Source of the DNA: Steroidobacteraceae bacterium | GTDB taxonomy: Bacteria; Pseudomonadota; Gammaproteobacteria; Steroidobacterales; Steroidobacteraceae | Reading direction: 5' to 3' | Length of the DNA: 64,000 bases | NCBI GenBank assembly: GCA_025458905.1 | Contig: JALORN010000004.1 | Coordinates: 62,001-126,000 of the forward strand | Part shown: positions 29,691-49,250 of the stretch, piece by piece | Numbering within the stretch: the stretch's first letter is position 1 | Layout of the letters: every line of letters starts with the position of its first letter | The notes under the pieces: model-generated | Told to the model about the DNA's origin: nothing | What the model saw: the letters and a program-made list of their open reading frames with translations, nothing else | Databases searched by the model: none | Made by a program: the position numbers and the translations under genes

Positions 29691-30125
29691 TCAACGCGTG
29701 GCCGGCTCGTCCTCGCCGATGAGACGCAGCTGTGCGAGCCGCCACCAGCCGCGTTCGGGCACCCAGGTCGCGAGCCAGCGTGCGTGCGCGTGGCGGCGGC
29801 CGGGCGGCGCGCGGGCCCACAGGTCGAGCCTGTTCTCGTACTCGAGCACCAAGTGCCCGTCCTTGACGGCCGAGGCCAGTGCGCGTTCCGGCGGCCAGTC
29901 GCTGGCCGAGACGCGCAGCGCCTGCAGTGGAGACACGCGCAGCGGTACGGGGCACCAGCTGAGGCCACCGTCCCGGCTTTCGCTCACCTCGAGGTAACGG
30001 TCGCTGACCTGGCCGCGGATGCGCTTTCGCCCCATGCCGCGCACCGCCATCCATACACCGGAGGGCAGTGCGTGTACCTGCTCTTCGGCCAGGAAAGCGC
30101 CTTCTTCGATCGACGAGGTGTTCAC
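29691..30125 (-). CDS. hypothetical protein with Asp-box-like motif
   Basis: 144 residues, no signal peptide. One SESRDGGLSW segment resembles a BNR/Asp-box turn; the C-terminus WLATWVPERGWWRLAQLRLIG is rich in Trp. Start GTG 30125 is chosen because GGAG lies eight bases before it, whereas the in-frame GTG at 30134 has the site immediately abutting. It lies 66 bp downstream of the nitrilase-fold gene on the same strand and may end that operon. No family recognised. Confidence 0.55.
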   Translation of the reverse strand: MNTSSIEEGAFLAEEQVHALPSGVWMAVRGMGRKRIRGQVSDRYLEVSESRDGGLSWCPVPLRVSPLQALRVSASDWPPERALASAVKDGHLVLEYENRLDLWARAPPGRRHAHARWLATWVPERGWWRLAQLRLIGEDEPATR

Positions 30126-30191
30126 CTTCGGCACTCCGATCAGACGGGGCCGATGCCACCGTCAGAGATCGCATGCTATCCGACGCGGCAG

Positions 30192-31385
30192 TCAGTACCG
30201 CCAGCGCCGCTGACCCTCGATCAGTTCCGCGGCTTCCGCGAACGAGCCGGGCACGCGCTGCGCGTAGCCGTTGGGCGGGAAGCGCGAGACGTACTCGGCG
30301 TAGATCGGCGCATAGAGTTGCATCGGCACGTCCGGGATCGCGGGCCGGCGGCGACGCTCGCCGAGGTCGAGCGTCGCGCCGATCGCGGTCTCGTGGACGT
30401 CACAGTCGTCCAGCACCTCGCCGCGCGTGCCGAAGATCGCACTGCGCCCGAGCATGCCGTTATCGGGGAAGTAGCCCTTGTTGCCCGGCGAGAGCGCATT
30501 CGAGGCATAGAGGGTGTAGAGCCGGTTGACGCGCGACGTCAGCTCGCCGTCGTAGCGCGAATAGCCGCCGAGCCCGCTGCGGATCACGACTTCGGCGCCC
30601 TTCATCGCCATGCAGCGGATCAACTCGGGCTCGCGGAGGATCGAGCTCATCGCGATGTTCCCGAGTTCCGTGCGTGCGACCGGGATCACCGCATCGAGCC
30701 CGTAGCGCTCCACGTAGGCGTCGTGCACGTCGTAGACGCTGGTGACGAAGTAGTCGGAGCCGGCGACCTGGTTGCGGGTGTGGAAGGCCTTCCAGTGGCG
30801 TGCCGCGATGGTGCCGTCGGGCCGCAGCAGCAGGTACTGTTCGAGCAGGTGGCCCTTCCAGTCCGGGTCGCGCACGTAGGCGCCGAAGGCGATCCAGCAC
30901 GCGTACTCGCGTGCCTTCGCGGCGAGCCGCTCGACCTCGGGCCCGGGAACCTCGATCGCGACGCGCTCCAGCGCAGGCCTGTCCCAGCGATCCCAGCCTT
31001 GCAGCGCGAACGCATGGAAGGCCACGAGGTCCTTGCGGCCGAAGTACCCGTGCGTCGCGTCCACCTGCTCGCAGAGGTGGTCGGCGTTGGCGCGCAGGCC
31101 GGCGGCGGCATTCGCGGGGTCGACGGCGAGCAGCCGCGACTGCACGACCGCGGCGGCGATGCGTTCCTTGCGCAGGGGAACGCTCGCATACGTGCCGTCG
31201 GCGGCAACCAGCCGTCCCGCGCCGGCGGCGGACTGCCCCGGGGCGCTCGCGGGTGTCACGGCCTTCCGCTCGGCGGCCTCGAGCGTGCCGAGCAAGGCCG
31301 CGGTGGCGCCGCCGGCGGCGATGCTCCGCAGCAGTTGGCGGCGCTCGCGCCGCCGCCGCCGGGCCGTTCCTGGGTCGATGCTCAT
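30192..31385 (-). CDS. nitrilase-fold (carbon-nitrogen hydrolase) protein, catalytic residues replaced
   Basis: 397 residues. The Arg-rich N-terminus (RRRRRERRQLLRSIAAGG) is a Tat-like signal. The nitrilase fold is clear from IAAAVVQSRLL, KDLVAFHAFALQGW, RHWKAFHTRN and GNIAMSSILREPELIRCMAMKGAEVVI. Aligned to the family, the catalytic Glu is Ala (FHAFALQG against FPEL..G) and the nucleophile Cys is Ser (AMSSILREPEL against ICYDLRFPEL); the Lys seems kept. So either a pseudoenzyme or altered chemistry. ATG 31385 has AGGAG at seven bases and overlaps the TGA of the CpcT-like gene. Fourth gene of the TonB receptor operon. Confidence 0.82.
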   Translation of the reverse strand: MSIDPGTARRRRRERRQLLRSIAAGGATAALLGTLEAAERKAVTPASAPGQSAAGAGRLVAADGTYASVPLRKERIAAAVVQSRLLAVDPANAAAGLRANADHLCEQVDATHGYFGRKDLVAFHAFALQGWDRWDRPALERVAIEVPGPEVERLAAKAREYACWIAFGAYVRDPDWKGHLLEQYLLLRPDGTIAARHWKAFHTRNQVAGSDYFVTSVYDVHDAYVERYGLDAVIPVARTELGNIAMSSILREPELIRCMAMKGAEVVIRSGLGGYSRYDGELTSRVNRLYTLYASNALSPGNKGYFPDNGMLGRSAIFGTRGEVLDDCDVHETAIGATLDLGERRRRPAIPDVPMQLYAPIYAEYVSRFPPNGYAQRVPGSFAEAAELIEGQRRWRY

Positions 31386-32518
31386 GGTGCAACTCCTGCG
31401 GACCGCGACGCCGCCTGGTCGCCGGCGCGCTGCGGGGGCTCGACGCGCTCGCAGGCCACGGCGATCCACCCGAGGTTCAGGCCGATGAAGGCCGCATCGG
31501 GGTCGTGCAGCGAATAGCCGGCGAACGGCTGCTCGCCCTCGCGTATCGATAGGAACATGAAGTCCGCGCGCTGGGTGTAGTAAGGGTACTCCTTGTCGCG
31601 CAGCCGCAGCTGGAAGACACGGCCGTCGCCTCGCGCGAGGCGCAGCGTGCCGCCCTGGCTGTGCAGCCGCTGGCGCTCGTAGCGCCGGTCGCCGGGGCTC
31701 GTGCCCTCGAGGTAGCTCCTGGCGTAGAAGTCGACGTCGCATTCGAACACCTTGGCCCGGTGCAGCTTGTGCGGCACGCCGGTCGGGTGTCCCGCGAGCA
31801 GGCGGCCGCTGGCGAGCTCGAAACTGCGGTCGGTGCGCCAGTACTTGGTGGCCGAGAGCACGAGGTCATGCTGCGACCAGCGACGCGCGGCGCCCTCGCG
31901 GAAGATGCAGGCGCGGCCGTCCATGCCGCCGACGTACTGGTCCGCCTCGGGCCGCCACAGCACTTCGCAGCCCTCGATCCAGGTCAGGTCGCCCGGCTGC
32001 AGCGCCCGGAGCCGCGCGGGATCGAGGTGCGCGCCGCGCACGGCGCCGGGGTCGCGGAACAGCCCCTGCCGCATGCGCACGCCGCGCGCCCGCGCCGACT
32101 CGAACGTCACCAGGCGCTGCCGGAACACCTTCGAGGGATCGTCCCCGAGATACTCCTCGACGTAGAAGACGATCGCGCCGAACGCCGGCAGTTCGATGCG
32201 GCGGTGCACGGCATGCACGCGCTCGTGCCGCTCGGCCTCGGGCACCTGCGCGCGCCCCTCGGTCTCGAACCAGACCTGCTCCTGGTTGTCCCAGGTGCCC
32301 TCGAACCAGCGCACGAGGCGCACCAGGTCGCGTGCGCTGGGGTCGTCCCGCGGGTCGGCGGCCGGCGCCGCGGCGGCCGACACGAGCGCGGCGAACGGCA
32401 GCAGGCCCTTCAGCAGCCGGCGCGGTAGGCCTAGCGAGGACCCCCGGGCGTTCGTGGAGCGAGAGGTGCGGGCCGGCGCGTCCGGGCCGCCCGCCGTGTC
32501 AGATCCGTTCCAGTACAT
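31382..32518 (-). CDS. CpcT/CpeT-family (DUF1001) secreted protein
   Basis: 378 residues. A signal-like segment (LLKGLLPFAALVSAAAAPAAD) precedes a CpcT/CpeT lipocalin-like domain: LVRLVRWFEGTWDNQEQVWFE, RQRLVTF, LRALQPGDLTWIEGCEVLWRP and GRACIFR. In cyanobacteria this fold attaches bilins to phycobiliproteins; no such substrates are expected here, so the fold may bind another small molecule. ATG 32518 is used; a GTG at 32530 is also possible. It overlaps the end of the amine-oxidase gene by 20 bp and its TGA overlaps the next ATG. Confidence 0.85.
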   Translation of the reverse strand: MYWNGSDTAGGPDAPARTSRSTNARGSSLGLPRRLLKGLLPFAALVSAAAAPAADPRDDPSARDLVRLVRWFEGTWDNQEQVWFETEGRAQVPEAERHERVHAVHRRIELPAFGAIVFYVEEYLGDDPSKVFRQRLVTFESARARGVRMRQGLFRDPGAVRGAHLDPARLRALQPGDLTWIEGCEVLWRPEADQYVGGMDGRACIFREGAARRWSQHDLVLSATKYWRTDRSFELASGRLLAGHPTGVPHKLHRAKVFECDVDFYARSYLEGTSPGDRRYERQRLHSQGGTLRLARGDGRVFQLRLRDKEYPYYTQRADFMFLSIREGEQPFAGYSLHDPDAAFIGLNLGWIAVACERVEPPQRAGDQAASRSAGVAP

Positions 32519-34013
32519 CGAGCGCGGCACGCTCGCCGGATTCGAACGCGCCCTCCATGCCCCGCTGCATGATCGCGGTGTGCTCGCCGCAGAACACGAC
32601 GTGCGGCAGGCCTTCGCGCAGGTGGTTCCCGAAACGCACGATCTGGCCCGGCTGCCAGTACACCCAGTCGCCGGCGCCGAACGGGTCGCGCGCGCAGGAC
32701 TGGATCGTCAGCAGCTCGAGCTGGCCGCGCGTGGATGGCCGGATCCGCGCTGCGACCGCCGTCACGTACTCGAAGCACTGTGTGTCGCTCATGAACGCGA
32801 AGCGGCGCGCCTCGGCGCCGTTGATGAACGCGATGACCGAGGAGATTCCCCCGTCGGGCCCACGGTCGAGCGGCGTGAAGCGTTCGATGCCGGTGTCGGT
32901 CCACATGCCCGGCGGCAGGCCGTCCTTGTCCCAGTACGGTTCGCGCAGCCGCATGTGCACCTGGATCGACAGCCCGTACTCGATCTCGCGGACCGCCGAG
33001 GCAAGCGGCTCGGGCAGTGTCGGCTGGAACAGCACGTCGCGCAGGCGCGGCATCGGCATCGAGACGACGGCGAAGCGTGCCCGCAGGTCCGTGTCATCGG
33101 TGCAGCGCACGATCGCGCCGTCGGTCCCGCTCTCGATGCTCCATGCGGCCTTGCCGAGCGCCACCGGGCGGCGCAGGGAGCGCGCCATCGCCTCGGGCAT
33201 CCGCGAATTGCCGCCCCGCACCTGCAGCCCCTCCATCTGGCCAGGCTTGAGGTTGCCGCGCGAGGAGTCGCCGACGTGATAGCGCCGCATCTCGTGCAGG
33301 GCCGAGGTGTTGGCGAGCCGGTCGGTGTGCACGACGATGCCGGCGAGCCGGATCGTCTCTGCGGAATGGCCCTTGGCCCGCAGGTAGTCGGTGGCCGGGA
33401 TGTCCCAGCGCGCGAATTCCGGCGTCAGCCAGGCATCGAGCGAGCGGCCGCGCAGCGGCGCATCGCGATACATCAGGGTCTGCAGCAGCTGGTGCGGCAG
33501 GATCCTGCGGTCGTCGCCGGAGAGGGGATTGGCGCGGTGCGTCGGCCACTCGTCCTTGCGGATCGCCTGCCCGCCGATGTGGTACATCCAGTCGGTCGGC
33601 GGGGCGAGGGTCTTCGGCGAATGCAGTTCGAGCTTGAGTTTGCGCGCCGCCTCGATCATGCGTCCGTAGCTCGCGCCGATGACCTCGCCGCCGGCTTCGA
33701 CGCCACCGGGCACGTTCATCAGTGTATAGACGCGTCCGCCGACGCGCCGGCGACCCTCGATCACCTGGACCTCGAGGCCCTGCTCTTCGAGCAGCATCGC
33801 GGCATGCAGTCCCGCGAGGCCGGCGCCGACCACGACGGCGTCGAGCGGCCGTTCCCCCGCGGCGTACAGCGGGCGCGGGAGCGTGCCGGCAGCGGCGGCC
33901 GCACCGAGCAGGCGCAGCGCGTGCCGCCGCGGAAGTCGTCGCAGGCGGCTCAGAACCGGTACCCCAGCTCTATTCCGATCTCGCGGCCGCGCGGGATGCC
34001 GACGAACTGGCAC
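32499..34013 (-). CDS. exported flavin-containing amine oxidase (paralogue 1)
   Basis: About 504 residues. LPRRHALRLLGAAAAAG is a Tat-like signal. The Rossmann motif VVVGAGLAGLHAAMLLEEQG, then EGRRRVGGRVYT, and the C-terminal CGEHTAIMQRGMEGAFESGE are those of monoamine-oxidase-type flavoproteins. The start is uncertain: GTG 34013 lies inside the receptor gene, while a CTG at 33953 overlaps the receptor TGA as CTGA and fits the signal better. The enzyme probably oxidises an amine in the periplasm after uptake by the preceding receptor. Two further paralogues lie at 37812-39326 and 39329-40816. Confidence 0.88.
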   Translation of the reverse strand: MPVRRHPARPRDRNRAGVPVLSRLRRLPRRHALRLLGAAAAAGTLPRPLYAAGERPLDAVVVGAGLAGLHAAMLLEEQGLEVQVIEGRRRVGGRVYTLMNVPGGVEAGGEVIGASYGRMIEAARKLKLELHSPKTLAPPTDWMYHIGGQAIRKDEWPTHRANPLSGDDRRILPHQLLQTLMYRDAPLRGRSLDAWLTPEFARWDIPATDYLRAKGHSAETIRLAGIVVHTDRLANTSALHEMRRYHVGDSSRGNLKPGQMEGLQVRGGNSRMPEAMARSLRRPVALGKAAWSIESGTDGAIVRCTDDTDLRARFAVVSMPMPRLRDVLFQPTLPEPLASAVREIEYGLSIQVHMRLREPYWDKDGLPPGMWTDTGIERFTPLDRGPDGGISSVIAFINGAEARRFAFMSDTQCFEYVTAVAARIRPSTRGQLELLTIQSCARDPFGAGDWVYWQPGQIVRFGNHLREGLPHVVFCGEHTAIMQRGMEGAFESGERAALDVLERI

Positions 34014-36481
34014 AGCTGCGTGGCGCGCGTCGCAGCGGGCAGCGGCGTCTCGGGGAAGTAGCAGGTGCTCGAGCCGGTGAGGCCGGCGCCGAGCAGCGTC
34101 TCCTCGTCCGTGAGGTCGCGGCCAAAAAGGCTCGCGCTCCAGCGGCCGTCGTCGCTCGACAGCGTGGCGCGGGCGTTGAAGCGGGTGACGGCCTCGATCG
34201 AGGCGCGGTTGGCGAGGTCGATGTAGCGCCGGCCGGTGTGCAGCGCATCGAGGCGGAACGCCAGGTCCATGGCGCCGCCCGCGACCGGCATGCGGTACTC
34301 GCCGGAGAGGTTGCCGGTCACGCGCGGCGAGTTGATCGAGGTCTTGCCCTCGAGCGTCTCGCCCGGCAGGAACAGCTGCGGGTCGGTGTTGCGGAACGGA
34401 CCGACGGCATCGACGAACTCGTGGCGGGCATAGCCCACCCCGTAGGTCAGCGAGAAGCGCTCGGTCGCCTGCCAGCGACCCTCGAGCTCGGCGCCGTAAA
34501 TCTCCGAACCGCCGACGGACTGCACGCCGGCGAGCGTCGGCGTCGTACCCGGGGGGCAGTTCGAGATCGCGCCGGTGACGGGATTGAAGGTGCAGGCCGG
34601 GTTCGGCACCTGCACCAGCAGCTGCTGGCCGGTGATGTCCTGCTGGAACAGCGATACGTTCAGGATCAGCGCCCCGTCGAGCAGCGTCGACTTCAGGCCG
34701 AGCTCCAGGTTCTCGAGCTCCTCGGGCGGCACGAAGGCGAAGTTGAACGCGGCGGCAGAGGTGTTGAGACGGCCGCTCTTGACGCCCTTGGACCAGTACA
34801 GATACCCGTTGACCTCGTCGGTGAAGGCGTACTGTGCGGTGATGCGCGGCAGGAAGTCCGACTCCTCGGCCGCACGGTCCGCGGGGTTCGGCACGGTGCA
34901 GGTCGTGCAGGCGTCGAGGTAGACGGTCTCGCGCTGGTAGCGGCCTTCGACCGACAGCGTGAGGCGGTCGGTGACATCGTAGGCGAGGTCGCCGAACACC
35001 GCTTCGTTCCGGAAGCGCTCGAGGCCGCGCGACTGGCGTACGACGGTCGGTCCAGGATTGACGAGCGAGGTCGGTGCGACGACAGCCTTGTTGCGGTTGT
35101 CCTCCTCGAAGTAATACAGGCCGGCGGACCAGCGCAGGCGCTGCTCGCCGGACGAGGCGAGCTGTAGCTGGTGGCTCTGGTTGCGGAACAGTTCCTCGAA
35201 CGCCGGTATCAGGCCGCCGGCCTTGCTGGCTCCGGTCACGCCGAGCGGTCCCCAGACCGGATCGTTGGCGATCGCCCGCCGGCGAAAGTCCTCCACCGCC
35301 CAGTATTCCTGCTCGAACCAGCCGAAGCGGTAGCTCAGGTCGAGCCCGGCGACGCGGCTCGCGAACAGCGCGGAGGCGAACTGCCGCTTGCGGTTGCGAC
35401 CGCCGAAGTCGGCGTACTCGGCCGGCAGGAAGCCGACCGGAAACACCGAGGTCACGTCGGTCCCGACGAGGCCGGCGCCGGTGTTCGGGATGTCGCCGTC
35501 GATCCAGACCGTGCCGATGCCAGCGCAGGCCGCGGGACAACCCGCGGTGATCGGGTTCACCGAGGTGATCGTGTACAGGCCGCCGATGTTGTACGGCCGA
35601 CCGCCCCAGTCGGTCGGCTGCACGACGGTGGCGAGCGGCGGCCCGTCTTCCTCGAAGTCGACCGCGTAGCGCAACTTCAGGGTCGTGTCCTCGGAGAAGC
35701 GCGCGAACAGCGTGGTGCCGTAGCTGTTGGTGCTCTCGGCGCCGATCCGGCCGCCGTCCCGGCCGCGATTCGGGTAGAGGCCGCCTACGCGGATGCGGGT
35801 CGCATTGAGCGACGCCCAGAGGCGATCCTTCAGGATCGGGAAGGCCACGTCGCCCGTGGCGAACACGTTCGAGGCGCTGTCCTCGCCACTCTGGTCGCCA
35901 TAGCGCACCCGCAGCCCGCCCTGGATCTCGTCGACCTCCGGGGTCTTGGTGATGTAGTCGATGGCACCGGAGTAGGTGGCGCGGCCGTACTTGGCGCTCT
36001 GCGGACCCTTGAGGATCTCGACGCGCTGCATCTGCGACAGGTCGATGCCGGCGAGCTGGCCGCTGACGTAGATGCCGTCGACGAACACCGAGAGCCCCTG
36101 GTAGCGCTCGTCGGAGGTCTGCGGCGAGAGCCCGCGCACCACCAGGGCGGTCAGGTCCGCCCGACCGGATCCGGAATAAAACGTCAGGGAAGGGGTGAAG
36201 GCGACCAGGTCGCGCACGTCGAGCACGGTGCGGGCCTGCAGCGCCTCGCCCGACAGCACCGTGATCGCGATCGGGACGTCCTGGACGTCCTCCTCACGCC
36301 CGCGCGCCGTGACGATCACCTCCTGCAGCACCTCGGGTGCTCCAGCGTCCGGGGCGCGGGGAGCGGAGGATTGCTGGGCGAGCCCGGGGGCGCTGGACAG
36401 CGCAGCCATTGCGAGCAGGGTGCCTCGGGCGGCCGGAACGACCCGCGTGGCGACGGCGCGACGATCGACAGTGAGTGACAT
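33950..36481 (-). CDS. TonB-dependent receptor of the amine-oxidase cluster
   Basis: 843 residues. The start is decided by the ribosome site: AGGAG lies six bases before ATG 36481, but directly abuts the in-frame ATG at 36487. Signal ends near GLAQQ; plug motifs are EVIVTARGREEDVQDVP, ALVVRGLSPQ and RVEILKGPQSAKYGRATYSGAIDY; the barrel ends IGIELGYRF. This is the iron-complex/secondary-metabolite class common in sphingomonads and Steroidobacter relatives. The gene follows the LytTR regulator by 60 bp and is overlapped by the amine-oxidase start, suggesting uptake and oxidation of one substrate. Confidence 0.92.
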   Translation of the reverse strand: MSLTVDRRAVATRVVPAARGTLLAMAALSSAPGLAQQSSAPRAPDAGAPEVLQEVIVTARGREEDVQDVPIAITVLSGEALQARTVLDVRDLVAFTPSLTFYSGSGRADLTALVVRGLSPQTSDERYQGLSVFVDGIYVSGQLAGIDLSQMQRVEILKGPQSAKYGRATYSGAIDYITKTPEVDEIQGGLRVRYGDQSGEDSASNVFATGDVAFPILKDRLWASLNATRIRVGGLYPNRGRDGGRIGAESTNSYGTTLFARFSEDTTLKLRYAVDFEEDGPPLATVVQPTDWGGRPYNIGGLYTITSVNPITAGCPAACAGIGTVWIDGDIPNTGAGLVGTDVTSVFPVGFLPAEYADFGGRNRKRQFASALFASRVAGLDLSYRFGWFEQEYWAVEDFRRRAIANDPVWGPLGVTGASKAGGLIPAFEELFRNQSHQLQLASSGEQRLRWSAGLYYFEEDNRNKAVVAPTSLVNPGPTVVRQSRGLERFRNEAVFGDLAYDVTDRLTLSVEGRYQRETVYLDACTTCTVPNPADRAAEESDFLPRITAQYAFTDEVNGYLYWSKGVKSGRLNTSAAAFNFAFVPPEELENLELGLKSTLLDGALILNVSLFQQDITGQQLLVQVPNPACTFNPVTGAISNCPPGTTPTLAGVQSVGGSEIYGAELEGRWQATERFSLTYGVGYARHEFVDAVGPFRNTDPQLFLPGETLEGKTSINSPRVTGNLSGEYRMPVAGGAMDLAFRLDALHTGRRYIDLANRASIEAVTRFNARATLSSDDGRWSASLFGRDLTDEETLLGAGLTGSSTCYFPETPLPAATRATQLCQFVGIPRGREIGIELGYRF

Positions 36482-36541
36482 CGGCATCTCCTGAAGCGTT
36501 GCTGTCGATCAAACGCTCGGGAGTCACGCGGTCGCAAGACG

Positions 36542-37666
36542 TCATTCGCGAGTTGGCGGGTCTCGTTCGCGAAATTGCAGTCCGTCCGGCCGATCCGGCG
36601 GTGGCGCGCAGACGACAAGTGCGGCCGGACCGCCCCGTCGCGGCTTCGGCGCGAGCATGGGCCGGGCCGATAGCAAGGCGGGCAGGTAGGTCGAACTCAC
36701 GGGAACCTTGATGCCGCCCGGCATCACCGCGAGATGCCGGCGTCCGCGCCGCTCGATACCGGCGACGTGCCGAGCATCGATGCAGAACGAGCGATGCACG
36801 CGCAGCAGGCCATGGCTCGCCATTTCCCGTGCGGCATCCTCGAAGCGGTGCAGCAGTCGCAACGAACCCGCCGCGCATTGCACCTCGACGTAGTGATCGA
36901 GTGCGCGCAGTACCCGGACGGCGCCGCAATCCCCCGGCAGCCGCTCGACGAACGGCCGCGACGGGAACTCGACCGCGGGGGCCGGGGCGGTCGTCTCGGA
37001 GGTTGCGAGCGAGGACGAGGGAGCCGGCGACGGCGCGCGCGACGGCGAGTGCGCGGGCCTGGCGGAGGGCATTGGCGAGGGCGGCGCGGCGACGTCCGCC
37101 GGATCGACGACCGGGTGGCGCACGGCACCGTCGCGCGCGGCGGGCAGCACGGTCACGCCCAGCCAGCGCTCGTAGAACGCCGTGGTCAGGATCCACGCGA
37201 GCATCGTCGGGCTGTAGGCAACGAGCATGGTCGCGAATTCGCCGGCGGACAACGGCATCCAGCCGGCGAAGGCGGGTGGGCTCGCGTCGAACACCGGGGA
37301 GAGTGCGCTGACGACGGCGCGGTGCAGGGGCCGCGCCAGGAACTCCGCTAGGACGGCCGCCAGGGGCAGCAGCAGCGGCCACGGGAGGCGGCCGGGCGCG
37401 CCGGCCTGCCGCAATGTGGCAGCCACCATCCACTTGAGCTGCCACAGCAACATCGAGATCGTGGCGCAATAGATCACCGAGATCTCGCGGGGCATCGCGG
37501 CGGCCAGCGTGCCGAACTGCGCCCAGCCGAAGCAGGCGCCGAACGTGACGGGCACGCCGACGAAATAGACGAGTCGCAGGCGGCGCCTGCGTTCGTCCTC
37601 CGTCCATTGTGGCCCGACGGCTGCCGCGAACGACAGTTCCCCACGTCCCGCGTCGACTGCGCGCAT
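36542..37666 (-). CDS. membrane-bound LytTR-domain transcriptional regulator
   Basis: 374 residues from ATG 37666. Four membrane segments (about residues 20-165) are followed by a Pro/Ala/Ser-rich linker and a C-terminal LytTR DNA-binding domain (VRVLRALDHYVEVQCAAGSLRLL, then LLRVHRSFCIDARHVAGIERRGRR). There is no receiver domain, so it is a one-component membrane sensor of the LytTR family. An in-frame GTG at 37735 would extend it over the divergent promoter. It lies first in the run regulator, receptor, oxidase, CpcT-like, nitrilase-like, and is divergent from a second amine oxidase. Both flanking promoter regions carry similar repeats. Confidence 0.88.
   Translation of the reverse strand: MRAVDAGRGELSFAAAVGPQWTEDERRRRLRLVYFVGVPVTFGACFGWAQFGTLAAAMPREISVIYCATISMLLWQLKWMVAATLRQAGAPGRLPWPLLLPLAAVLAEFLARPLHRAVVSALSPVFDASPPAFAGWMPLSAGEFATMLVAYSPTMLAWILTTAFYERWLGVTVLPAARDGAVRHPVVDPADVAAPPSPMPSARPAHSPSRAPSPAPSSSLATSETTAPAPAVEFPSRPFVERLPGDCGAVRVLRALDHYVEVQCAAGSLRLLHRFEDAAREMASHGLLRVHRSFCIDARHVAGIERRGRRHLAVMPGGIKVPVSSTYLPALLSARPMLAPKPRRGGPAALVVCAPPPDRPDGLQFRERDPPTRE
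36545..36585. promoter_or_regulatory. 21-bp-spaced direct repeats upstream of TonB receptor (candidate LytTR operator)
   Basis: TTCGCGA occurs at 36545-36551 and 36566-36572, exactly 21 bp apart. The flanks are also similar: TTCGCGAGTTGGCGGGTC against TTCGCGAAATTGCAGTCC. Paired direct repeats two helical turns apart are the usual LytTR-domain operator layout. The second unit is preceded by CG, giving CGTTCG as in AlgR sites. They overlap the last codons of the LytTR gene, 64-104 bp before the receptor start. Confidence 0.55.
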
Positions 37667-37712
37667 GCGAACCCCCGCCTGCCCGGCCTGCCACCCCGAT
37701 TTCACGCGAGAC

Positions 37713-37732
37713 TTCGCGAAATCGCCAGTCCC
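37713..37732. promoter_or_regulatory. third copy of the LytTR-type repeat, in the divergent promoter
   Basis: TTCGCGAAATCGCCAGTCCC closely matches the two repeats at 36545 and 36566 (shared TTCGCGAAATnGC and AGTCC). It lies 47 bp before the LytTR start and 80 bp before the divergent amine oxidase. It suggests autoregulation and control of both directions. A partner half-site 21 bp away is not obvious; a CGCGAGAC echo lies 10 bp to the left. Confidence 0.5.
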
Positions 37733-37811
37733 CACCTACCCGGACCGTTGGCGGGGGTACGGGTCCATGCGAGCCTGCGTCCGTTCTTCCGCCGGGAGAC
37801 TGCCGCGAGCC

Positions 37812-39326
37812 ATGGTCCGACCCGACCCGACCCGACCCCTCCCGTCCCCTGCATCGTCGGGGCATGCGCCGGGCGTTCAGCCCGCCGCCGCCGGCGGCTG
37901 GACCCGGCGCGACAGCTTGCAGTTGCTGGGCGCCGCGCCACTCGCGGCGCTCGCAGCGGACGACCAGCCCCGGCGCGCCGGCAAGCTGCGGGCGCCGCGC
38001 GTCGCGATCGTCGGCGCCGGCCTCTCGGGCCTCTACTGCGCCTTGCTTCTGGAACAGGAGGGGGTCGAGGTCACGTTGCTGGAGGGGCGCGACCGGACCG
38101 GGGGACGGGTGTACACACTCCATGACATCCCGGGCCGGCCCGAAGCCGGTGGCGAGGTGTTCGGGCCGCGCTACGCGCGTTGCCTGGACGTCCTGAAGTC
38201 GCTCGGGGTCGCGCAGCGGGCGCCGCGCCCGCGTACCCAGGCCGACGACGCCGAGCTGGTGATGAACGTGCGCGGGCAGACGATCCGCCTCGAACAATGG
38301 GCCACCCATCCCCTGAACCCGCACCCGGCGGCGCTCAAGGCGCTCACGCCCTGGCGGTTGTTCTTCGAATATCTGCCCCGGCAGATGGGCTTCCAGGACC
38401 TGGCCGAGTGGATGGACCCCAGGCATGCCGCGCTCGACGTGTCCTACGCCAGCCACCTGCGCACCTTGGGCTTCGACGACGAGACGATCCGTCTGCAGCA
38501 GGCGAACTCGGCCTACGGCAACACGTTGCACGAGGTGTCGACCCTGCACCTGCTGCACTACTTCACCTGGGCACGCCTGAACGCCACGGGTGCCGGCCGC
38601 ACGCAGTGCGCCGGCGGCAACCAGCAGCTGCCCGACGGCATGCGCGGCCGGCTCCGGGGCGACGTGCTGTTGCGATCCGTGGTCTCGACGCTCGAGGATC
38701 GCGTCACCGGGGTGCGCCTGCGGACCCGCGACGGACGCACGTTCGACGCCGATCGCGTGGTCGTCACGGTGCCGTTCTCGCTGGCGCGGTTCCTCGACTT
38801 CGACCCGCCGCTGCGCGGCGTGCAGTGGGAGGCGGTCGAGACGCTGCCGTACTACGCGACGTTCCAGATCCACTACGAATTCCGCGGGCGCTTCTGGGAG
38901 AACGACGGCCTGCCGCCTTCGCTGTGGACCGATGGTCCCGTCGGCCGCGTGAACCTGCTGCGCGACGAAGCCGGTGCGCCGGCCTGCCTGCTGGTGTATG
39001 TCAACGGGGTGCAGGCCCAGTACCTCGACCGCCTCGCGCCCGCGGAGGCGGATGCGTTCGTGCAGTCGGAGCTCGCCCGACTGCGCCCCTCGACCCGCGG
39101 CCAGCTGCGCGCGATCCGCATCCATTCGAACCAGAACGACCCGTTCTTCGGCGGCTCGTACGCGTACTGGAAGCCGGGCATGCCGCTGCGCTTCCCCGGG
39201 GCGATGGCGCAGCCGCACGGCAGGATCCACTTCGCCGGCGAGCACACCGCCACCCTGCACCGGGGCATGGAGGGCGCGATGGAATCGGGCGAACGCGCGG
39301 CGCTCGAGGTCCTCGCGGCGCTGTGA
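37812..39326 (+). CDS. Tat-exported flavin-containing amine oxidase (paralogue 2)
   Basis: 504 residues from ATG 37812; an upstream ATG at 37767 is possible. TRRDSLQLLGAAPLAALA is a Tat signal. FAD motifs: VAIVGAGLSGLYCALLLEQEG, EGRDRTGGRVYTL and FAGEHTATLHRGMEGAMESGE. Mid-protein QWATHPLNPHP, GNTLHEVSTLHLLHYFTWAR and CAGGNQQLPDGMR align with paralogue 3, its closest relative here. It is divergent from the LytTR regulator and convergent, with 2 bp between stops, with paralogue 3. Expected periplasmic amine oxidase; substrate unknown. Confidence 0.9.
   Translation: MVRPDPTRPLPSPASSGHAPGVQPAAAGGWTRRDSLQLLGAAPLAALAADDQPRRAGKLRAPRVAIVGAGLSGLYCALLLEQEGVEVTLLEGRDRTGGRVYTLHDIPGRPEAGGEVFGPRYARCLDVLKSLGVAQRAPRPRTQADDAELVMNVRGQTIRLEQWATHPLNPHPAALKALTPWRLFFEYLPRQMGFQDLAEWMDPRHAALDVSYASHLRTLGFDDETIRLQQANSAYGNTLHEVSTLHLLHYFTWARLNATGAGRTQCAGGNQQLPDGMRGRLRGDVLLRSVVSTLEDRVTGVRLRTRDGRTFDADRVVVTVPFSLARFLDFDPPLRGVQWEAVETLPYYATFQIHYEFRGRFWENDGLPPSLWTDGPVGRVNLLRDEAGAPACLLVYVNGVQAQYLDRLAPAEADAFVQSELARLRPSTRGQLRAIRIHSNQNDPFFGGSYAYWKPGMPLRFPGAMAQPHGRIHFAGEHTATLHRGMEGAMESGERAALEVLAAL
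37817..37836. repeat. four tandem CCGAC units near the amine-oxidase start
   Basis: CCGAC repeated four times directly after the chosen ATG of amine oxidase 2. A pentanucleotide repeat in coding sequence could shift the frame by slippage, but four copies is few. Confidence 0.6.
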
Positions 39327-39328
39327 TC

Positions 39329-40816
39329 TCAGGCGCGCTGCAGGATCTCCAGCGCCACCCGCTCGCCGGACTCGAGCGCGCCTTCCATGCCGCGCGCCAT
39401 GAGGCTGGTGTGCTCGCCGCAGAGGTGCATGCGGCCGTGCGGTGCCCGCATGGCCTGAGCGAAGCGCGGGATCTGCCCCGGCGCCCACGAGGCATAGGCG
39501 CCGCCGGAAAACGGCGTCTGCTGCCAGGACCAGGCGCGCAGCGGGCGCAGGGCGCCCTTGGCGGCGGGCCGGATCCGCTCGACCTCCGCCATGATCCAGC
39601 GTGCCGCCGCATCGGGGTCCATGCGGTCGAAGCGCGCCGTGCTGTCGCCGTTCGAGTAGTGCATGAACGAGGAGATGGTGCCGTTCGGCCCATAGTTCAG
39701 CGCATTGAAGCGCTCGACCGGGCCATCGGACCAGAACGAGGGCGGCAGCCCGTCCTTTTCCCAGAACGGCTTCTCGATCGCGAAATGCACCTGGAAGGCC
39801 GCGTGGTACGGCAGGGTAGCGACCGCCTCGGCCTGCGGCCCCGTGAACCACGGATCCACCGTGATCAGACGCAGCGCGGAAAACGGCATCGACATCACCA
39901 GGAAGCGCGCACGATGCATGCTGCCGTCGGCGCAGCGCGCCTCGACGCCGTTCTCGTCGAGTCGTACGCCCTCGACGGCGCGGCCGAGCAGCACGTCGCC
40001 GCGCAGCGCGTTGGCCATCGCCTCCGGCATGCGCTGGTTGCCGCCCTCGACGCTCATCGGGCCGCCGCGACCCTGGCCGATCCGGGCCGAGACGCGCGCG
40101 AACGCGAACACGTGGCAGAGCTGCAGCAGCGAGCTCTGCCAGAGGTTGGTGCCGTAGGAGCTGAACTTGTCGGCCAGCCGGATCGTCTCGTCGTCGAGCC
40201 CGAGCCCGCGCAGGAAGCTCGCGACCGGCACGTCGAGGTCGGCGCGCGCCGCGGACTGCCAGGCGTCGAGCTCGAGCTCCGGCAGCTTGCCGTTCAGGAA
40301 ACCGAAGATCACCTGCCAGGGCCCGAGCTTGCGCAGCGCCGGCGGGTGCGGGTTCAGTGGATGGTTCTCCCATTCGGTGAGCGGGATGAACTGCCCGTGC
40401 AGGTGCAGCGCGCTGTCGTCGCGCGGCTCGGTGCGCAATCTCTCCGGCACCAGGCGCACCCCGAGCCGGCGGGCCAGGTCGAGGAAGCGGGCGTAGGACC
40501 AGCCGATGCCGTTGCCGCCCGCCTCGGGCCGACCCGGCAGGTCGTCGAGCGTGAAGAGACGACCACCGATGCGTTCGCGGCCCTCGAGCACCGTCACCGC
40601 GAGGCCCTCGTCCTGCAAGGTCAGCGCGGCGTTGAGGCCGGACAGGCCGGCACCGATCACCAGCACGTCCGAGCGCGTCGTCGGAAGCGCGCGCCGTGCC
40701 GCGACCACGGCCGCGTGGGCCTGCCGGCCCGATGCCACGTGCCAGGCCATGGCGCCCAGCAGGCCGCCCGCGAGACGACGGCGCGTCAGGGCGATGCGAT
40801 TGCGTGGTCGGGTCAT
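39329..40816 (-). CDS. Tat-exported flavin-containing amine oxidase (paralogue 3)
   Basis: 495 residues from ATG 40816. TRRRLAGGLLGAMAWHVA is a Tat-type signal. FAD motifs: VLVIGAGLSGLNAALTLQDEG, EGRERIGGRLFTL and CGEHTSLMARGMEGALESGE. It shares WxxHPLNPHP and EGGNQRMPEAM blocks with paralogues 1 and 2. It is divergent from the DUF1838 gene across a 70 bp spacer. The three paralogues may form a heteromeric set or act in sequence on one amine; this is inference. Confidence 0.9.
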   Translation of the reverse strand: MTRPRNRIALTRRRLAGGLLGAMAWHVASGRQAHAAVVAARRALPTTRSDVLVIGAGLSGLNAALTLQDEGLAVTVLEGRERIGGRLFTLDDLPGRPEAGGNGIGWSYARFLDLARRLGVRLVPERLRTEPRDDSALHLHGQFIPLTEWENHPLNPHPPALRKLGPWQVIFGFLNGKLPELELDAWQSAARADLDVPVASFLRGLGLDDETIRLADKFSSYGTNLWQSSLLQLCHVFAFARVSARIGQGRGGPMSVEGGNQRMPEAMANALRGDVLLGRAVEGVRLDENGVEARCADGSMHRARFLVMSMPFSALRLITVDPWFTGPQAEAVATLPYHAAFQVHFAIEKPFWEKDGLPPSFWSDGPVERFNALNYGPNGTISSFMHYSNGDSTARFDRMDPDAAARWIMAEVERIRPAAKGALRPLRAWSWQQTPFSGGAYASWAPGQIPRFAQAMRAPHGRMHLCGEHTSLMARGMEGALESGERVALEILQRA

Positions 40817-40886
40817 CGCGCAGAGTATTCCACGAGCGGCGCAGCCTGCGCCAAGCCCACATCCACATGACGGAAGGAGCATCAGC

Positions 40887-41828
40887 ATGAGCGCCAGCGG
40901 CAAAGACGAACTGCACCAGGCCACGCGGCGCGACGCGCTCGCCTCGCTCGCCCTCGCCGGCGGTGCCCTGGCGGCAGCCGGCGCGGCCGATGCCCTGCTG
41001 CAGCCGGCACATGCGGCCTCGCCGACGCCGCGGAGGCTGCGCGAGCTCGAGCGCCTGGCTTCGGCGCTGCCGGTCCGCGACCCGGCCTTCAACGTGCGCA
41101 CGCTCGGCCGACTGCAGGGCGACCTGTCCGGACGGACGATCTGGTCGTTCAGCACCGGCCGCGTGTTCGGCCTGGTTCCCGGCGAGGGGCCGCCGCTCGC
41201 GGAGTACGGTCGCCTGATGTACCGGACCGACGGCGTCGCCGTGAAGATGTCGCGCCAGCGCGCCGATGGCGCCGTGGAGGACCGGTCGCGCAACTGGATG
41301 TTCTACAAGGATCCGGAAACGAACGCCTACCTGACCGAGTTCCGCAATCCCTACACCGGCGAAACCCTGCCGGTGCCGACGTTCCGCGGCGGCATCGGCG
41401 GCACGGTGATGACCGTCGACGGGCCGCAGGTCAGCGCCAACTTCACGATGGAGAGCACCGTGTTCGGCCGGCCGGTGCTGCTCGACTGGCGCTTCCTCGG
41501 CGAGCACGCCTTCATCCACCGACACGCCTTCACCCGCTGGAAGGAAGGCTCGACCGGCTTCCACAAGACCGAGATGACGCTCGACGCCTGGGTGTGCCGC
41601 ATCGAGGACGTCGCGAACGACAAGCTCACGATGATCCCGAGCACCTACTCCTGGACCAGCCAGACCGAGTGGCAGTCGTGGCTGAAGATGCGCGGCCGGC
41701 CCGGCGCCATGCTGTGGCGCAACGAAAGCGTCAAGCTGCGCTCGATCGACGAGTTGCCGCCGGACTTCGTCGCGCAGAGCGAGAAGGCGATGCCCGGCAA
41801 GCTCACGGAGTCCTTGACCTGGGCGTGA
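40887..41828 (+). CDS. Tat-exported DUF1838 family protein
   Basis: 313 residues. ATRRDALASLALAGGALAAAG is a Tat-type signal. The DUF1838 core is clear: FNVRTLGRLQGDLSG, GRLMYRTDGVAVKMSRQRADGAVEDRSRNWMFYKD (partly), EFRNPYTGE and TQTEWQSWLKMRGRPG. ATG 40887 has AAGGAG at seven bases. DUF1838 proteins have no assigned activity and often sit beside oxidoreductases and TonB receptors in soil proteobacteria. The shared export route and divergent promoter link it to amine oxidase 3. Confidence 0.88.
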   Translation: MSASGKDELHQATRRDALASLALAGGALAAAGAADALLQPAHAASPTPRRLRELERLASALPVRDPAFNVRTLGRLQGDLSGRTIWSFSTGRVFGLVPGEGPPLAEYGRLMYRTDGVAVKMSRQRADGAVEDRSRNWMFYKDPETNAYLTEFRNPYTGETLPVPTFRGGIGGTVMTVDGPQVSANFTMESTVFGRPVLLDWRFLGEHAFIHRHAFTRWKEGSTGFHKTEMTLDAWVCRIEDVANDKLTMIPSTYSWTSQTEWQSWLKMRGRPGAMLWRNESVKLRSIDELPPDFVAQSEKAMPGKLTESLTWA

Positions 41829-45792: not shown

Positions 45793-45873
45793 CACGGTGC
45801 CTCGGGCCAGTGGTCGATGGGTATCACGGGCCGCCGGGCCGTGCCCGGCTCCCTGGTCGGGTCGGCGCAAACC

Positions 45874-46569
45874 TCAGCGCAAGCCCTGGATGTAGGCGGC
45901 GAGGTCGCGGATGTCGTCGGCGGTCAGGCGCTTCGAGATCGTGGTCATCATGTGACCGTTGCGCGAGCGCGCCGGCTGGCCGGCCTGGTCGACATAACGC
46001 TGCTCGTTGGCGTAGTCCGTGAGCTGCTTGACCGTATAGACCGAGTGCTGGGCCACGAGTGCCGGATAGCCGGCGCCCGGATTGCCGCGGCCGACCGGGC
46101 CGTGGCAGGCCTTGCAGGAGGGGATCTGGCGGTTGCGGTCGCCGGCGCGGTAGAGGCGCTCGCCGTTCTTGTAGTGCTCGGGGTCGGCCTCGAGGCCGGC
46201 CGGGGTCTGCACCGAGAAGTAGGCGGCGAGGTCGTGGATGTCCTCGTCGGTCAGCGGCGCGGCCAGCGGGTACATGATGGGGTTGTTGCGGGTGCCGGCG
46301 CGGAACATCGCCAGCTGCTCGCGGATGTAGGCCGCGTTCTGGCCCGCGAGGCTCGGCCATTCGGGGTTGACGCTGTTGCCGTTCTGGCCGTGGCAGGCGG
46401 TGCAGACCGCGGCCTTGGTGGCACCGGCTTCGACGTTGCCCGCGGGGGCGAGCTTGCCGGGGATGATCGGGGTGGGCGCGGTGGCGGCCAGGGCGGTCGG
46501 CGCCACGGGGGTGACGGACAGGCCCAGCAGGGCGACGGCGGCCCACGCTACACGCTTCGCGTTCGACAT
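45874..46569 (-). CDS. cytochrome c4-type dihaem cytochrome
   Basis: 231 residues. Signal peptide ends ALAA. Two similar halves, each with a CXXCH site (CTACH near 57, CKACH near 152) and LAAYxxxQ/I closing helix, with axial Met candidates in PIMYPLA and HMMTTISK. Cytochrome c4 carries electrons to terminal oxidases. Gene order engB (divergent), cc4, dsbA matches Pseudomonas. ATG 46569; 199 bp divergent spacer to engB. Confidence 0.94.
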   Translation of the reverse strand: MSNAKRVAWAAVALLGLSVTPVAPTALAATAPTPIIPGKLAPAGNVEAGATKAAVCTACHGQNGNSVNPEWPSLAGQNAAYIREQLAMFRAGTRNNPIMYPLAAPLTDEDIHDLAAYFSVQTPAGLEADPEHYKNGERLYRAGDRNRQIPSCKACHGPVGRGNPGAGYPALVAQHSVYTVKQLTDYANEQRYVDQAGQPARSRNGHMMTTISKRLTADDIRDLAAYIQGLR

Positions 46570-48296: not shown

Positions 48297-49250
48297 CTAC
48301 GGGTCGCGGCCGGCCGTCATCCCCGCGGCCCTGCACCCTTCGCCCACGTCCGTCGCCGCGGCGGCATCGGGTACGGGCAGGCGCAGCGCCACGATGCCGA
48401 GGGCATGCGGCGTCGCGGATCGCGCATGCTGCGCACCGCGCGCCCCGTCGAAGGCCATGACGGCGAGCGTGCCGTCCGACGCACCGGCACCATCCGGATG
48501 CAGCCAGCGCAGTCGACGCGTGACGCGCGGCATCTCGTCCCAGGGCAGGCCGAAGATGTTCGGGCCCGCCGGTCCGAGTGGCCCGGCTTCGTCGCGCAGG
48601 CTGCGGAACCCGAGTCCGTCCTCGTAGAAACGCATGGCGCGCCCGAAGTCGGCGACGACCTCGAAGGCGTTGAACGGCCGGGACAGTCCGTCGCCGAGCG
48701 ACCAGCCCTCGAGCGGCGGCGCGACCCGCTGCAGCGGGGTGAGCGTGATGCCGTCCGGGTCGGTCAGCATCGCCTCGATCACCGTGAACTCCTGCAGCGT
48801 GAAGCGCACCGGCGCGCTGTGGCCCTGGAAGCCCGCGCGGCGGAACGCCGGCAGCAGCGCCTCGAAGGAGCGGATGCGCACGTTGAGGCCGCCGATGCCA
48901 CCGGGCTCCCAGGTACGCGCCTCGGCCCGCAGTGGCGTGAGCGACGCCGCGTCGTCGAACTGGACGAGTCGCACGCTGCCGCGCGGCGAATCGGGCGCGC
49001 GCAGCAGGACATAGCGCCCGCCGACCCCGGGCGGCAGTCGCCACAGCTCGCGTTCTGCGGGAGCGAGCGTGCCGGTTGCCTCGCGGCGCCATCCGCCGAC
49101 ACCGACGAGGAAGGCCTCCAGTCGCGCGACGTCCGATACCGAAAAGACGGCTTCCTGCCAGCCTGCGGCTCTGCCGGGAATCGGCGCCAGGGCCAGCAGG
49201 ACGACGAGCGACAGCGACAAGAGGCACGGCCGTGCACGGGAGGGCTGCAT
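48297..49250 (-). CDS. exported VOC (glyoxalase-fold) superfamily protein
   Basis: 317 residues. A signal peptide (LLSLSLVVLLALAPIPGRAAG) is followed by two or more VOC beta-alpha-beta units: EAVFSVSDVARLEAFLVGVGGW, GGLNVRIRSFEALLPAFRRAGFQG and FEVVADFGRAMRFYEDGLGFR. Residue spacing suggests a bidomain glyoxalase/dioxygenase fold, but metal ligands are not clear. Exported VOC proteins are unusual. ATG 49250. The C-terminus ends soon after LRLPVPDA, perhaps a little short. Function unknown. Confidence 0.78.
   Translation of the reverse strand: MQPSRARPCLLSLSLVVLLALAPIPGRAAGWQEAVFSVSDVARLEAFLVGVGGWRREATGTLAPAERELWRLPPGVGGRYVLLRAPDSPRGSVRLVQFDDAASLTPLRAEARTWEPGGIGGLNVRIRSFEALLPAFRRAGFQGHSAPVRFTLQEFTVIEAMLTDPDGITLTPLQRVAPPLEGWSLGDGLSRPFNAFEVVADFGRAMRFYEDGLGFRSLRDEAGPLGPAGPNIFGLPWDEMPRVTRRLRWLHPDGAGASDGTLAVMAFDGARGAQHARSATPHALGIVALRLPVPDAAAATDVGEGCRAAGMTAGRDP

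What the first reader, a model, noticed from the sequence alone, without database searches (positions are those of the whole stretch)
29691..41828. Possible undescribed uptake/oxidation system: LytTR regulator, TonB receptor, three exported amine oxidases, CpcT-fold, nitrilase-fold and DUF1838 proteins
Five genes on the minus strand (LytTR sensor, receptor, amine oxidase, CpcT/CpeT-fold, nitrilase-fold) are tightly packed, the last four overlapping. They are flanked by two more amine oxidases and a DUF1838 protein. Nearly all have Tat or Sec signals. The combination of a bilin-lyase-like fold with three flavin amine oxidases and a receptor does not fit a pathway I know; it suggests import and periplasmic oxidative processing of an amine, or synthesis of a bound cofactor or pigment.
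Basis: partly seen in the sequence, partly recalled or inferred. Interest (0 to 1): 0.85.

Follow-up and report, generated by a model that had tools for sequence, protein, structure and literature searches.

The report
Exported oxidation gene cluster, substrate unknown
Distantly related bacteria share a set of exported oxidising enzymes, an electron-carrying protein and two barrel proteins that resemble pigment-binding folds, and genomes that have it usually also carry genes that look suited to opening a ring-shaped nitrogen compound, so it probably belongs to an undescribed pathway for degrading such a molecule, perhaps a pigment.

Summary
A minus-strand operon (LytTR, TonB receptor, flavin "amine oxidase" AO_A, CpcT-fold, nitrilase-fold) lies beside AO_B, AO_C and DUF1838. 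It is not a local accident: in 40 of 41 loci carrying AO_A, from Bacteroidota and Pseudomonadota, AO_A adjoins the CpcT-like gene on the same strand. Cytochrome c lies within 10 kb in 31, AO_C/B in 27, DUF1838 in 23. One species fuses DUF1838 to CpcT. tblastn found no LytTR relative in these loci.

"Amine oxidase" is doubtful: the superfamily's flavin lysine is Gln in 40 of 40 AO_A rows. The nitrilase-fold protein has Ser for the catalytic Cys. The DUF1838 model resembles phycobilin-lyase and nitrobindin barrels.

An isochorismatase gene elsewhere on the window's contig, next to two PuuE-like genes, has relatives in 45 of 50 CpcT-carrying genomes, against 24 of 148 relatives of the window. Such trios adjoin LeuC/LeuD-like and lyase genes in 8 of 20 stretches. 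I infer periplasmic dehydrogenation of a nitrogenous compound, then cytosolic cyclic-imide breakdown. Tetrapyrrole catabolism is the boldest reading, about 0.25. No substrate or activity is shown.

The parts
36542..37666 (-). LytTR DNA-binding regulator with an N-terminal hydrophobic region (by eye); first gene of the operon, not found in relatives' loci
   Evidence: Pfam LytTR E 2.6e-9; no tblastn match under 1e-6 in 68 loci
33950..36487 (-). TonB-dependent outer-membrane receptor
   Evidence: Pfam barrel 1.6e-31, plug 7.7e-19; below every NCBIfam cut-off, best siderophore and heme receptor models
32499..33953 (-). AO_A: flavin amine-oxidase-family protein with a Tat-like signal and Gln in place of the flavin Lys; start uncertain (CTG overlap or GTG at 34013)
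   Evidence: Pfam Amino_oxidase 6.3e-46; alignment to MAO-B; motif counts; clade support 100/100
31382..32518 (-). CpcT/CpeT-fold protein with a signal-like N-terminus and an extra C-terminal beta domain
   Evidence: Pfam CpeT 5.9e-24; model pLDDT 85.9; Z 23.0 to CpcT 4o4o over 187 residues
30192..31385 (-). Nitrilase-fold protein with a Tat-like signal, Ser for the catalytic Cys and Ala for the catalytic Glu; Lys kept
   Evidence: Pfam CN_hydrolase 1.6e-12; alignment
37812..39326 (+). AO_B: flavin amine-oxidase-family protein with a Tat-like signal, Q-x-H type
   Evidence: Pfam 7.5e-59
39329..40816 (-). AO_C: flavin amine-oxidase-family protein with a Tat-like signal, Q-x-H type
   Evidence: Pfam 1.3e-53
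40887..41828 (+). DUF1838 protein with a Tat-like signal, predicted beta-barrel; divergent from AO_C
   Evidence: Pfam 5e-17; model pLDDT 88.2; Z 10.5 to CpeS 4tq2
48297..49250 (-). Possible further member: homologue of the 330-aa VOC (glyoxalase-type) family found in the Maribacter clusters; 6.5 kb away, no Pfam match
   Evidence: 186 bits to an HMM built here; no Pfam family

Best explanation
A conserved extracytoplasmic oxidation unit of a catabolic pathway. Proposed order: the TonB receptor brings in a nitrogen-containing, probably hydrophobic or aromatic compound. The CpcT-type and DUF1838 barrels bind it in the periplasm. AO_A and AO_C dehydrogenate it and pass the electrons to a c-type cytochrome rather than to oxygen. 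The products enter the cytosol, where VOC-type enzymes, the two PuuE-like proteins and the isochorismatase-type amidase open a cyclic imide to a diacid; in other lineages a LeuC/LeuD-like hydratase plus a lyase then cleave the diacid to central metabolites. Shown: gene content, conservation, active-site substitutions, folds (by model), a DUF1838-CpcT fusion in one species, and co-occurrence. Inferred: export by Tat, cytochrome as acceptor, the order of steps, the cyclic imide, and that both modules form one pathway. Not known: the substrate.
For: AO_A and CpcT are neighbours in 40 of 41 loci carrying AO_A, all on the same strand, spacing from an 8-base overlap to 153 bases, AO_A first in 39. 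Within 10 kb of CpcT in those 41: cytochrome c in 31, AO_C/B in 27, DUF1838 in 23, 22 of them over 100 bits. The AO_A loci come from Bacteroidota and Pseudomonadota. In Arenicella L185 one 481-aa protein holds DUF1838 (4.7e-12) and CpeT (2.2e-19), both over cut-off. Twin-Arg in the first 45 residues in 36 of 40 AO_A rows. Tat signal plus neighbouring cytochrome c is the published predictor of flavin amine dehydrogenases that use cytochrome c (PMC12224317; abstract and passages seen). The window genome has a cytochrome c 60% identical to that of the nearest relative, on contig C39 about 6 kb from a PvdO-like gene, and another just upstream of a different AO on C23. Isochorismatase relative at E 1e-40 or better in 45 of 50 genomes with this CpcT family (36 of 41 with AO_A, 9 of 9 others) against 24 of 148 relatives of the window, its own genome counted. 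All 7 of these with a close CpcT orthologue have it (own genome included; Fisher 1.3e-6; 8.0e-6 without the own genome). Within 10 kb of CpcT in the 68 loci: PuuE in 11, isochorismatase in 11, LeuC/LeuD in 12.
Against: The window cluster has no cytochrome c gene of this type; published Tat enzymes without one were mostly fast oxidases. The genome of L145, which holds the nearest relative of the window's cluster, lacks the isochorismatase, as do 4 more AO_A genomes. Of the 41 AO_A loci only 5 have PuuE, 4 isochorismatase and 3 LeuC/LeuD within 10 kb; most of the direct links are in loci without AO_A. DUF1838 is present at 44 places in this genome, often beside other catabolic genes, so it is not specific to this pathway. 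The window genome has no close orthologue of the L183 LeuC-like hydratase (best 40%; genome 86% complete). Its isochorismatase-PuuE trio is about 67 kb from the cluster. Of 20 stretches around the isochorismatase 10 show no hydratase or lyase gene, among them all 5 from relatives of the window. Five of the seven relatives with close CpcT orthologues share one genus, so the Fisher test overstates independence. No background for Bacteroidota was measured. The isochorismatase is nearest to N-carbamoylsarcosine amidohydrolase among solved structures, so an N-carbamoyl substrate is equally open.
Confidence: 0.6

Rival explanations
1. An ordinary periplasmic amine or alkaloid dehydrogenase route of the nicotine type (NicA2/Pnao with CycN): the AOs oxidise a C-N bond of an amine, and the barrels are accessory solute carriers. 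No tetrapyrrole is involved.
For: AO family, Tat-like signals and neighbouring cytochrome c match the published criteria. RidA-like, aminotransferase and isochorismatase genes stand nearby in relatives.
Against: The flavin Lys shared by the family (recalled) is Gln in 40 of 40 AO_A, 29 of 34 AO_C and 3 of 3 AO_B rows; MAO-B Tyr435 falls in a gap. Solved chains 5ttj/7kho (NicA2 by recall) are distant: E 4e-11 and 8e-11 against 6.5e-31 for MAO-B. I recall no CpcT or DUF1838 protein in nicotine catabolism.
Confidence: 0.3
2. Synthesis of a pigment, siderophore or bound cofactor: exported maturation enzymes like those of pyoverdine (PvdO-like protein, flavin oxidases, TonB receptor).
For: An FGE-type neighbour is closest to PvdO (E 7.7e-50, 169.5 bits against a cut-off of 500). 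TonB receptor. Bilin-lyase-type fold.
Against: None of the neighbours scanned matched an NRPS or PKS family (not all neighbours were scanned); the scanned ones are mostly hydrolases, hydratases, lyases, oxidoreductases and transporters.
Confidence: 0.08
3. Chance neighbourhood: a regulator-receptor pair next to unrelated oxidase genes.
For: LytTR has no match in relatives' loci and the receptor is there only in some; AO_B, AO_C and DUF1838 are on other transcripts.
Against: AO_A-CpcT adjacency 40 of 41 across phyla; DUF1838-CpcT fusion. In the window genome 5 of 9 AO loci have DUF1838 within 5 kb, binomial tail 0.003.
Confidence: 0.02

Closest known systems
NicA2/Pnao-CycN flavin amine dehydrogenases (PMC12224317)
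   Same: Flavin amine oxidase family, Tat export, neighbouring Sec-exported cytochrome c
   Different: Flavin Lys replaced by Gln, two kinds of FAO with CpcT and DUF1838 barrels, cross-phylum gene set, substrate unknown; nearest solved relative is MAO-B. Whether AO_A falls in that paper's three clades was not tested
T-type phycobilin lyase CpcT/CpeT (4o4o, 5hi8)
   Same: Same barrel fold, Z 23.0; profile E 5.4e-16
   Different: Signal-like N-terminus, extra C-terminal beta domain of about 100 residues, gene next to a flavin enzyme; carriers are not phototrophs as far as their names tell
S-type lyase CpeS / nitrobindin barrels
   Same: Best matches of the DUF1838 model, Z 10.5 and 8.8
   Different: Moderate Z, no sequence match shown, larger protein
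Dimethylmaleate hydratase plus 2,3-dimethylmalate lyase end of nicotinate fermentation (recalled)
   Same: LeuC/LeuD-like pair (LeuD/DmdB subfamily model over cut-off); in L183 next to a PEP-mutase-superfamily lyase
   Different: Attached to an isochorismatase-PuuE-PuuE trio; the lyase is closer to petal death protein and 2-methylisocitrate lyase than to 3fa3

Membership tests
Flavin amine oxidoreductase superfamily | Full-length Amino_oxidase domain with FAD-binding N-terminus | tested here: met
   E 6.3e-46, 7.5e-59, 1.3e-53 over cut-off, whole profile
Flavin amine oxidoreductase superfamily | Conserved Lys near flavin N5 (MAO-B K296; role recalled) | tested here: not met
   Gln in 40 of 40 AO_A, 3 of 3 AO_B, 29 of 34 AO_C rows, the window's three included; a family member by sequence, but amine oxidation is not assumed
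Cytochrome-c-using FAO dehydrogenases | Tat signal on the FAO | tested here: met
   Twin Arg within 45 residues in 36 of 40 AO_A rows and by eye in the window's; no signal-peptide predictor was run
Cytochrome-c-using FAO dehydrogenases | Neighbouring Sec-exported cytochrome c | tested here: inconclusive
   Within 10 kb in 31 of 41 AO_A loci, but not in the window; homologue on another contig
Cytochrome-c-using FAO dehydrogenases | Fast reaction with cytochrome c, slow with O2 | not testable with these tools
   needs stopped-flow
T-type phycobilin lyase | CpcT barrel fold | tested here: met
   Z 23.0, rmsd 2.6, 187 aligned
T-type phycobilin lyase | Attaches a bilin to a phycobiliprotein | not tested
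   No phycobiliprotein search was made; bilin-contact residues not compared
Nitrilase superfamily enzyme | Glu-Lys-Cys triad | tested here: not met
   Ala, Lys, Ser in the window; Glu, Lys, Ser in 11 of 11 cluster-14 homologues; Ser in 18 of 19 aligned rows
Calycin / S-type lyase-like barrel (DUF1838) | Same fold as CpeS or nitrobindin | tested here: inconclusive
   Z 10.5 over 156 residues, rmsd 3.6; Foldseek alone gave no clear match

The most novel reading that the evidence does not exclude
A bacterial pathway that degrades tetrapyrroles (bilins, heme or chlorophyll products). The two bilin-lyase-like barrels hold the tetrapyrrole in the periplasm, and lysine-less flavin enzymes dehydrogenate its bridges into cytochrome c. 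The resulting methyl-alkyl maleimides are opened by PuuE-like imidases and an isochorismatase-type amidase, hydrated by LeuC/LeuD-like enzymes, and split by dimethylmalate-lyase-like or HMG-CoA-lyase-like enzymes to pyruvate-level products. Pyrroles of heme and chlorophyll carry a methyl beside another group (recalled), which would suit such a lyase step.
Probability: 0.25. Interest if true: 0.92.

Novelty: new variant of a known kind. Interest (0 to 1): 0.75.

Why it matters
Bacteria of several lineages in two phyla, many of them marine by name, carry this set, so the substrate is probably common (inference). The gene set names a testable pathway with two conserved unknown families (DUF1838 and non-cyanobacterial CpcT) and a flavin enzyme clade that has lost the residue its superfamily is known for. 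DUF1838 is named in one paper of the library searched. If the substrate is a tetrapyrrole, it would give a genetic handle on how bacteria take these pigments back to central metabolism; in three searches of the open library no listed title or abstract start told of such a pathway.

Tried and rejected
LytTR as a conserved part: no tblastn match under 1e-6 in 68 loci; an IclR-type regulator was identified in one relative, L147, and its family recurs in others. The nitrilase-fold protein as an active nitrilase: catalytic Cys and Glu absent. Cytosolic oxidases: unlikely given twin-Arg signals. The gene at 45874-46569 as cytochrome partner: it has two CxxCH motifs (read), and the one-heme family HMM did not pick it up. 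A LeuC-like hydratase in the window genome: no close orthologue. Literature: no paper in the library holds amine oxidase, CpcT and cytochrome c together; none holds 5 of 6 of amine oxidase, isochorismatase, polysaccharide deacetylase, glyoxalase, amidohydrolase, Maribacter; one search was swamped by chemistry papers on maleimide and says nothing; two searches gave nothing used here. Foldseek for DUF1838 gave mostly porin-like and lipid-protein barrels at E near 0.001, so the calycin reading rests on VIA-align, a second look at Foldseek's own list. The C-terminal domain of the CpcT-like protein was not modelled alone.

Rows dropped or chosen before counts: one search scanned with two peptide patterns only, so the 68 loci are not all carriers. 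Some loci share a genome (L162/L196, L159/L199, L172/L198, L210/L200). Labels come from HMMs at E 1e-6 built on the same loci; one DUF1838 count (L160, 52 bits) is weak. The AO motif table used loci rows over 400 residues and own-genome rows over 380, 85 in all; the tree used 75 of them after thinning. B and C labels are best-BLAST labels; two B rows fall among C in the tree. The isochorismatase search over carriers used 50 of 68 loci: all 41 with AO_A and 9 of 27 without. The 20 stretches were picked by me for spread, 15 from carriers and 5 from relatives of the window. The 9 AO loci leave out five weak partial matches. The DUF1838 structure alignment left out own-genome rows.
Full report
What is there. 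Gene calls on the window and Pfam give, on the minus strand, LytTR (36542-37666), TonB receptor (33950-36487), flavin amine-oxidase-family AO_A (32499-about 33953), a CpcT/CpeT-fold protein (31382-32518) and a nitrilase-fold protein (30192-31385), tightly packed, the last four overlapping. AO_B (37812-39326, +), AO_C (39329-40816, -) and DUF1838 (40887-41828, +) stand beside them in separate units. The window is part of contig C105 of a 4.28-Mb, 86% complete genome in 109 contigs.

Conservation. A scan of genome contigs with an alignment of the CpcT-like protein, limited to two peptide patterns, gave 68 loci from Flavobacteriaceae, Saprospiraceae, Gamma- and Alphaproteobacteria, Acidobacteriota and others. 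AO_A was found in 41. In 40 of these 41 it is the immediate neighbour of the CpcT-like gene, on the same strand, from an 8-base overlap to 153 bases apart, AO_A first in 39. Within 10 kb there is a cytochrome c in 31, AO_C/B in 27, DUF1838 in 23 (22 over 100 bits), a nitrilase-fold gene of the window's type in 11. The other 27 loci lack AO_A: 5 of them have an AO_C-like gene and 11 a DUF1838 gene. A typical Maribacter order is cytochrome c, AO_A, CpcT, DUF1838, AO_C, VOC-type, nitrilase-fold, VOC-type genes. In Arenicella L185 DUF1838 and CpcT are one protein. The nearest relative of the window's cluster, L145, has DUF1838 at 62% identity, CpcT at 58% and AO_A at 70%, with a cytochrome c gene between AO_A and a TonB receptor. 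AO_A rows form one clade with 100/100 support that joins Pseudomonadota and Bacteroidota. LytTR had no tblastn match in these loci. In the window's own genome 44 DUF1838 places were counted, and 5 of 9 AO loci have one within 5 kb (binomial tail 0.003).

Chemistry of the parts. AO_A aligns best with monoamine oxidase B among solved chains. At the position of MAO-B Lys296 it has Gln, at Cys397 Asp, at Tyr398 Trp, and Tyr435 falls in a gap (MAO-B numbering and roles recalled). Gln is found in 40 of 40 AO_A, 3 of 3 AO_B and 29 of 34 AO_C rows; His stands two positions on in 40, 3 and 28. Of eight other AO-like rows in the own genome 2 have Gln and 2 Lys. The nitrilase-fold protein keeps Lys but has Ser for Cys and, in the window, Ala for Glu; the 11 cluster homologues have Glu, Lys and Ser, and 18 of 19 aligned rows, the second nitrilase group among them, have Ser. 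The CpcT-like model (pLDDT 85.9) matches CpcT 4o4o at Z 23.0 over 187 residues and has a further C-terminal beta domain. The DUF1838 model (pLDDT 88.2) is matched best by the S-type lyase CpeS 4tq2 (Z 10.5, 156 residues, rmsd 3.6), BFA1 (9.6), Ycf58 3bdr (9.3; a CpcS-type lyase by recall) and, lower, nitrobindins (up to 8.8), but porins stand among them (8.9 and lower) and Foldseek alone found nothing clear; I take a calycin-like barrel as probable, not shown.

Electron acceptor. A 2025 study reports that flavin amine oxidase family members with a Tat signal and a neighbouring cytochrome c gene are cytochrome-c dehydrogenases rather than oxidases, that most Tat members without such a gene react fast with O2, and that one from Erythrobacter sp. 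1414 is an exception (PMC12224317; abstract and passages). AO_A meets both signs in most relatives. The window lacks the cytochrome gene, but the genome has a 60% identical one on C39, about 6 kb from a PvdO-like gene, and another just upstream of a different AO on C23. The terms duf, Maribacter and genome neighborhood did not occur in that paper's main text.

The second module. Around the clusters I found an isochorismatase and two PuuE-like genes, LeuC/LeuD-like genes, an HMG-CoA-lyase-like gene and a CoA-transferase. Alphaproteobacterial L183 reads LeuC, LeuD, a PEP-mutase-superfamily lyase, nitrilase-type, PuuE, PuuE, isochorismatase, TonB receptor, CpcT, AO_C; the lyase is matched by petal death protein (8.5e-56) and by 2,3-dimethylmalate lyase 3fa3 (8e-46). 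The isochorismatase is nearest to N-carbamoylsarcosine amidohydrolase and then to 4l07 (4l07 as the maleamate amidase Ami is recalled), and Asp36, Lys130 and Cys163 are invariant in 32 rows (their role as triad recalled). The window's genome has this trio on the same contig, C105:22900-25444; the isochorismatase is 66% and the first PuuE 65% identical to the alphaproteobacterial ones, and the isochorismatase is 73% identical to that of a flavobacterium, which suggests transfer between phyla. At E 1e-40 or better the isochorismatase is in 45 of 50 carrier genomes (36 of 41 with AO_A, 9 of 9 without) and in 24 of 148 relatives, own genome counted. All 7 relatives with a close CpcT orthologue (E under 1e-70), the own genome among them, have it (Fisher 1.3e-6; without the own genome 6 of 6, 8.0e-6); 18 of the 24 have any CpcT match against 45 of the other 124 (0.0006). 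Five of the seven are one genus. The five carriers without it include the genome of L145. In 20 stretches fetched around the isochorismatase, the two PuuE genes follow directly in 19 and with two small ORFs between them in one; LeuC/LeuD with a DML-type lyase lie near in 3, LeuC/LeuD with HMGL and CoA-transferase in 5 (two of these with weak LeuD scores), HMGL and CoA-transferase without an adjacent LeuC/LeuD pair in 2, none of these in 10. In four flavobacterial genomes the AO_A-CpcT cluster and the full second module are separate loci on one contig, with neighbouring ranges (L162/L196, L159/L199, L172/L198, L210/L200).

Interpretation. Co-inheritance and neighbourhood support one catabolic pathway with an exported oxidative half and a cytosolic hydrolytic half. 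The PuuE-isochorismatase-LeuC/LeuD-lyase set fits opening of a cyclic imide to a substituted maleate, hydration and cleavage. That chain is inference from families; that cyclic imide hydrolases are PuuE-like is recalled. Substituted maleimides are what oxidation of heme or chlorophyll gives (recalled; PMC10343206 and PMC9496627 seen in the listing only). Together with two barrels of bilin-lyase type this makes tetrapyrrole catabolism the boldest reading. Against it: DUF1838 is a companion of many catabolic clusters in this genome, the isochorismatase may act on N-carbamoyl compounds, and none of the neighbours scanned was a heme oxygenase or another tetrapyrrole-specific enzyme (no targeted search was made). 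I therefore give 0.6 to the general mechanism and 0.25 to tetrapyrroles.

Limits. Gene calls are from a simple codon-usage caller of my own, and cluster labels from BLAST and HMMs built here on the same loci. Signal peptides were judged by eye or by a twin-Arg pattern. No background for Bacteroidota was measured. All functional statements need biochemistry.

Noticed in passing
own genome G000, contigs: 44 DUF1838 places in one 4.28-Mb genome, next to varied catabolic genes (MFS, SDR, alpha/beta hydrolase, ring hydroxylase, PhyH, VOC): a striking expansion of an uncharacterised family.
   Followed up: partly
L185:6670-8115 (+): Natural fusion of DUF1838 (residues 61-263) and CpeT (288-461) in an Arenicella MAG, between AO_C and cytochrome c genes.
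   Followed up: partly
G000 contig C105:22900-25444 (L222:12900-15444): Isochorismatase-PuuE-PuuE trio; the isochorismatase is 73% identical to a flavobacterial one, which suggests transfer between phyla.
   Followed up: yes
G000 contig C23 (L057, L058): DUF1838 followed by a PvdO-like gene, then MDR and CoA-transferase genes, and about 15-25 kb on a PuuE-like gene and a cytochrome c-AO pair.
   Followed up: partly
window 816-5558 (-): Large CobN/Mg-chelatase family protein (E 1.4e-293), with a TonB receptor homologue at 6240-8273.
   Followed up: no
window 26795-28300 (+): Berberine-bridge-type FAD oxidase (FAD_binding_4, BBE) with a signal-like start, a further flavin enzyme 2 kb from the cluster.
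   Followed up: no
window 41995-42945 and 49463-50593: Two PEP-CTERM proteins; the second also matches the strictosidine-synthase-like N-terminal family.
   Followed up: no
window 44908-46569: DsbA-like exported protein and a cytochrome with two CxxCH motifs side by side (read from the translation, not scanned).
   Followed up: no
L158, L161, L163-L168, L171, L179, L180: Nitrilase-fold proteins, several with a lipoprotein-like start, with Glu-Lys-Ser instead of Glu-Lys-Cys in Flavobacteriaceae: a possible non-canonical nitrilase family.
   Followed up: partly
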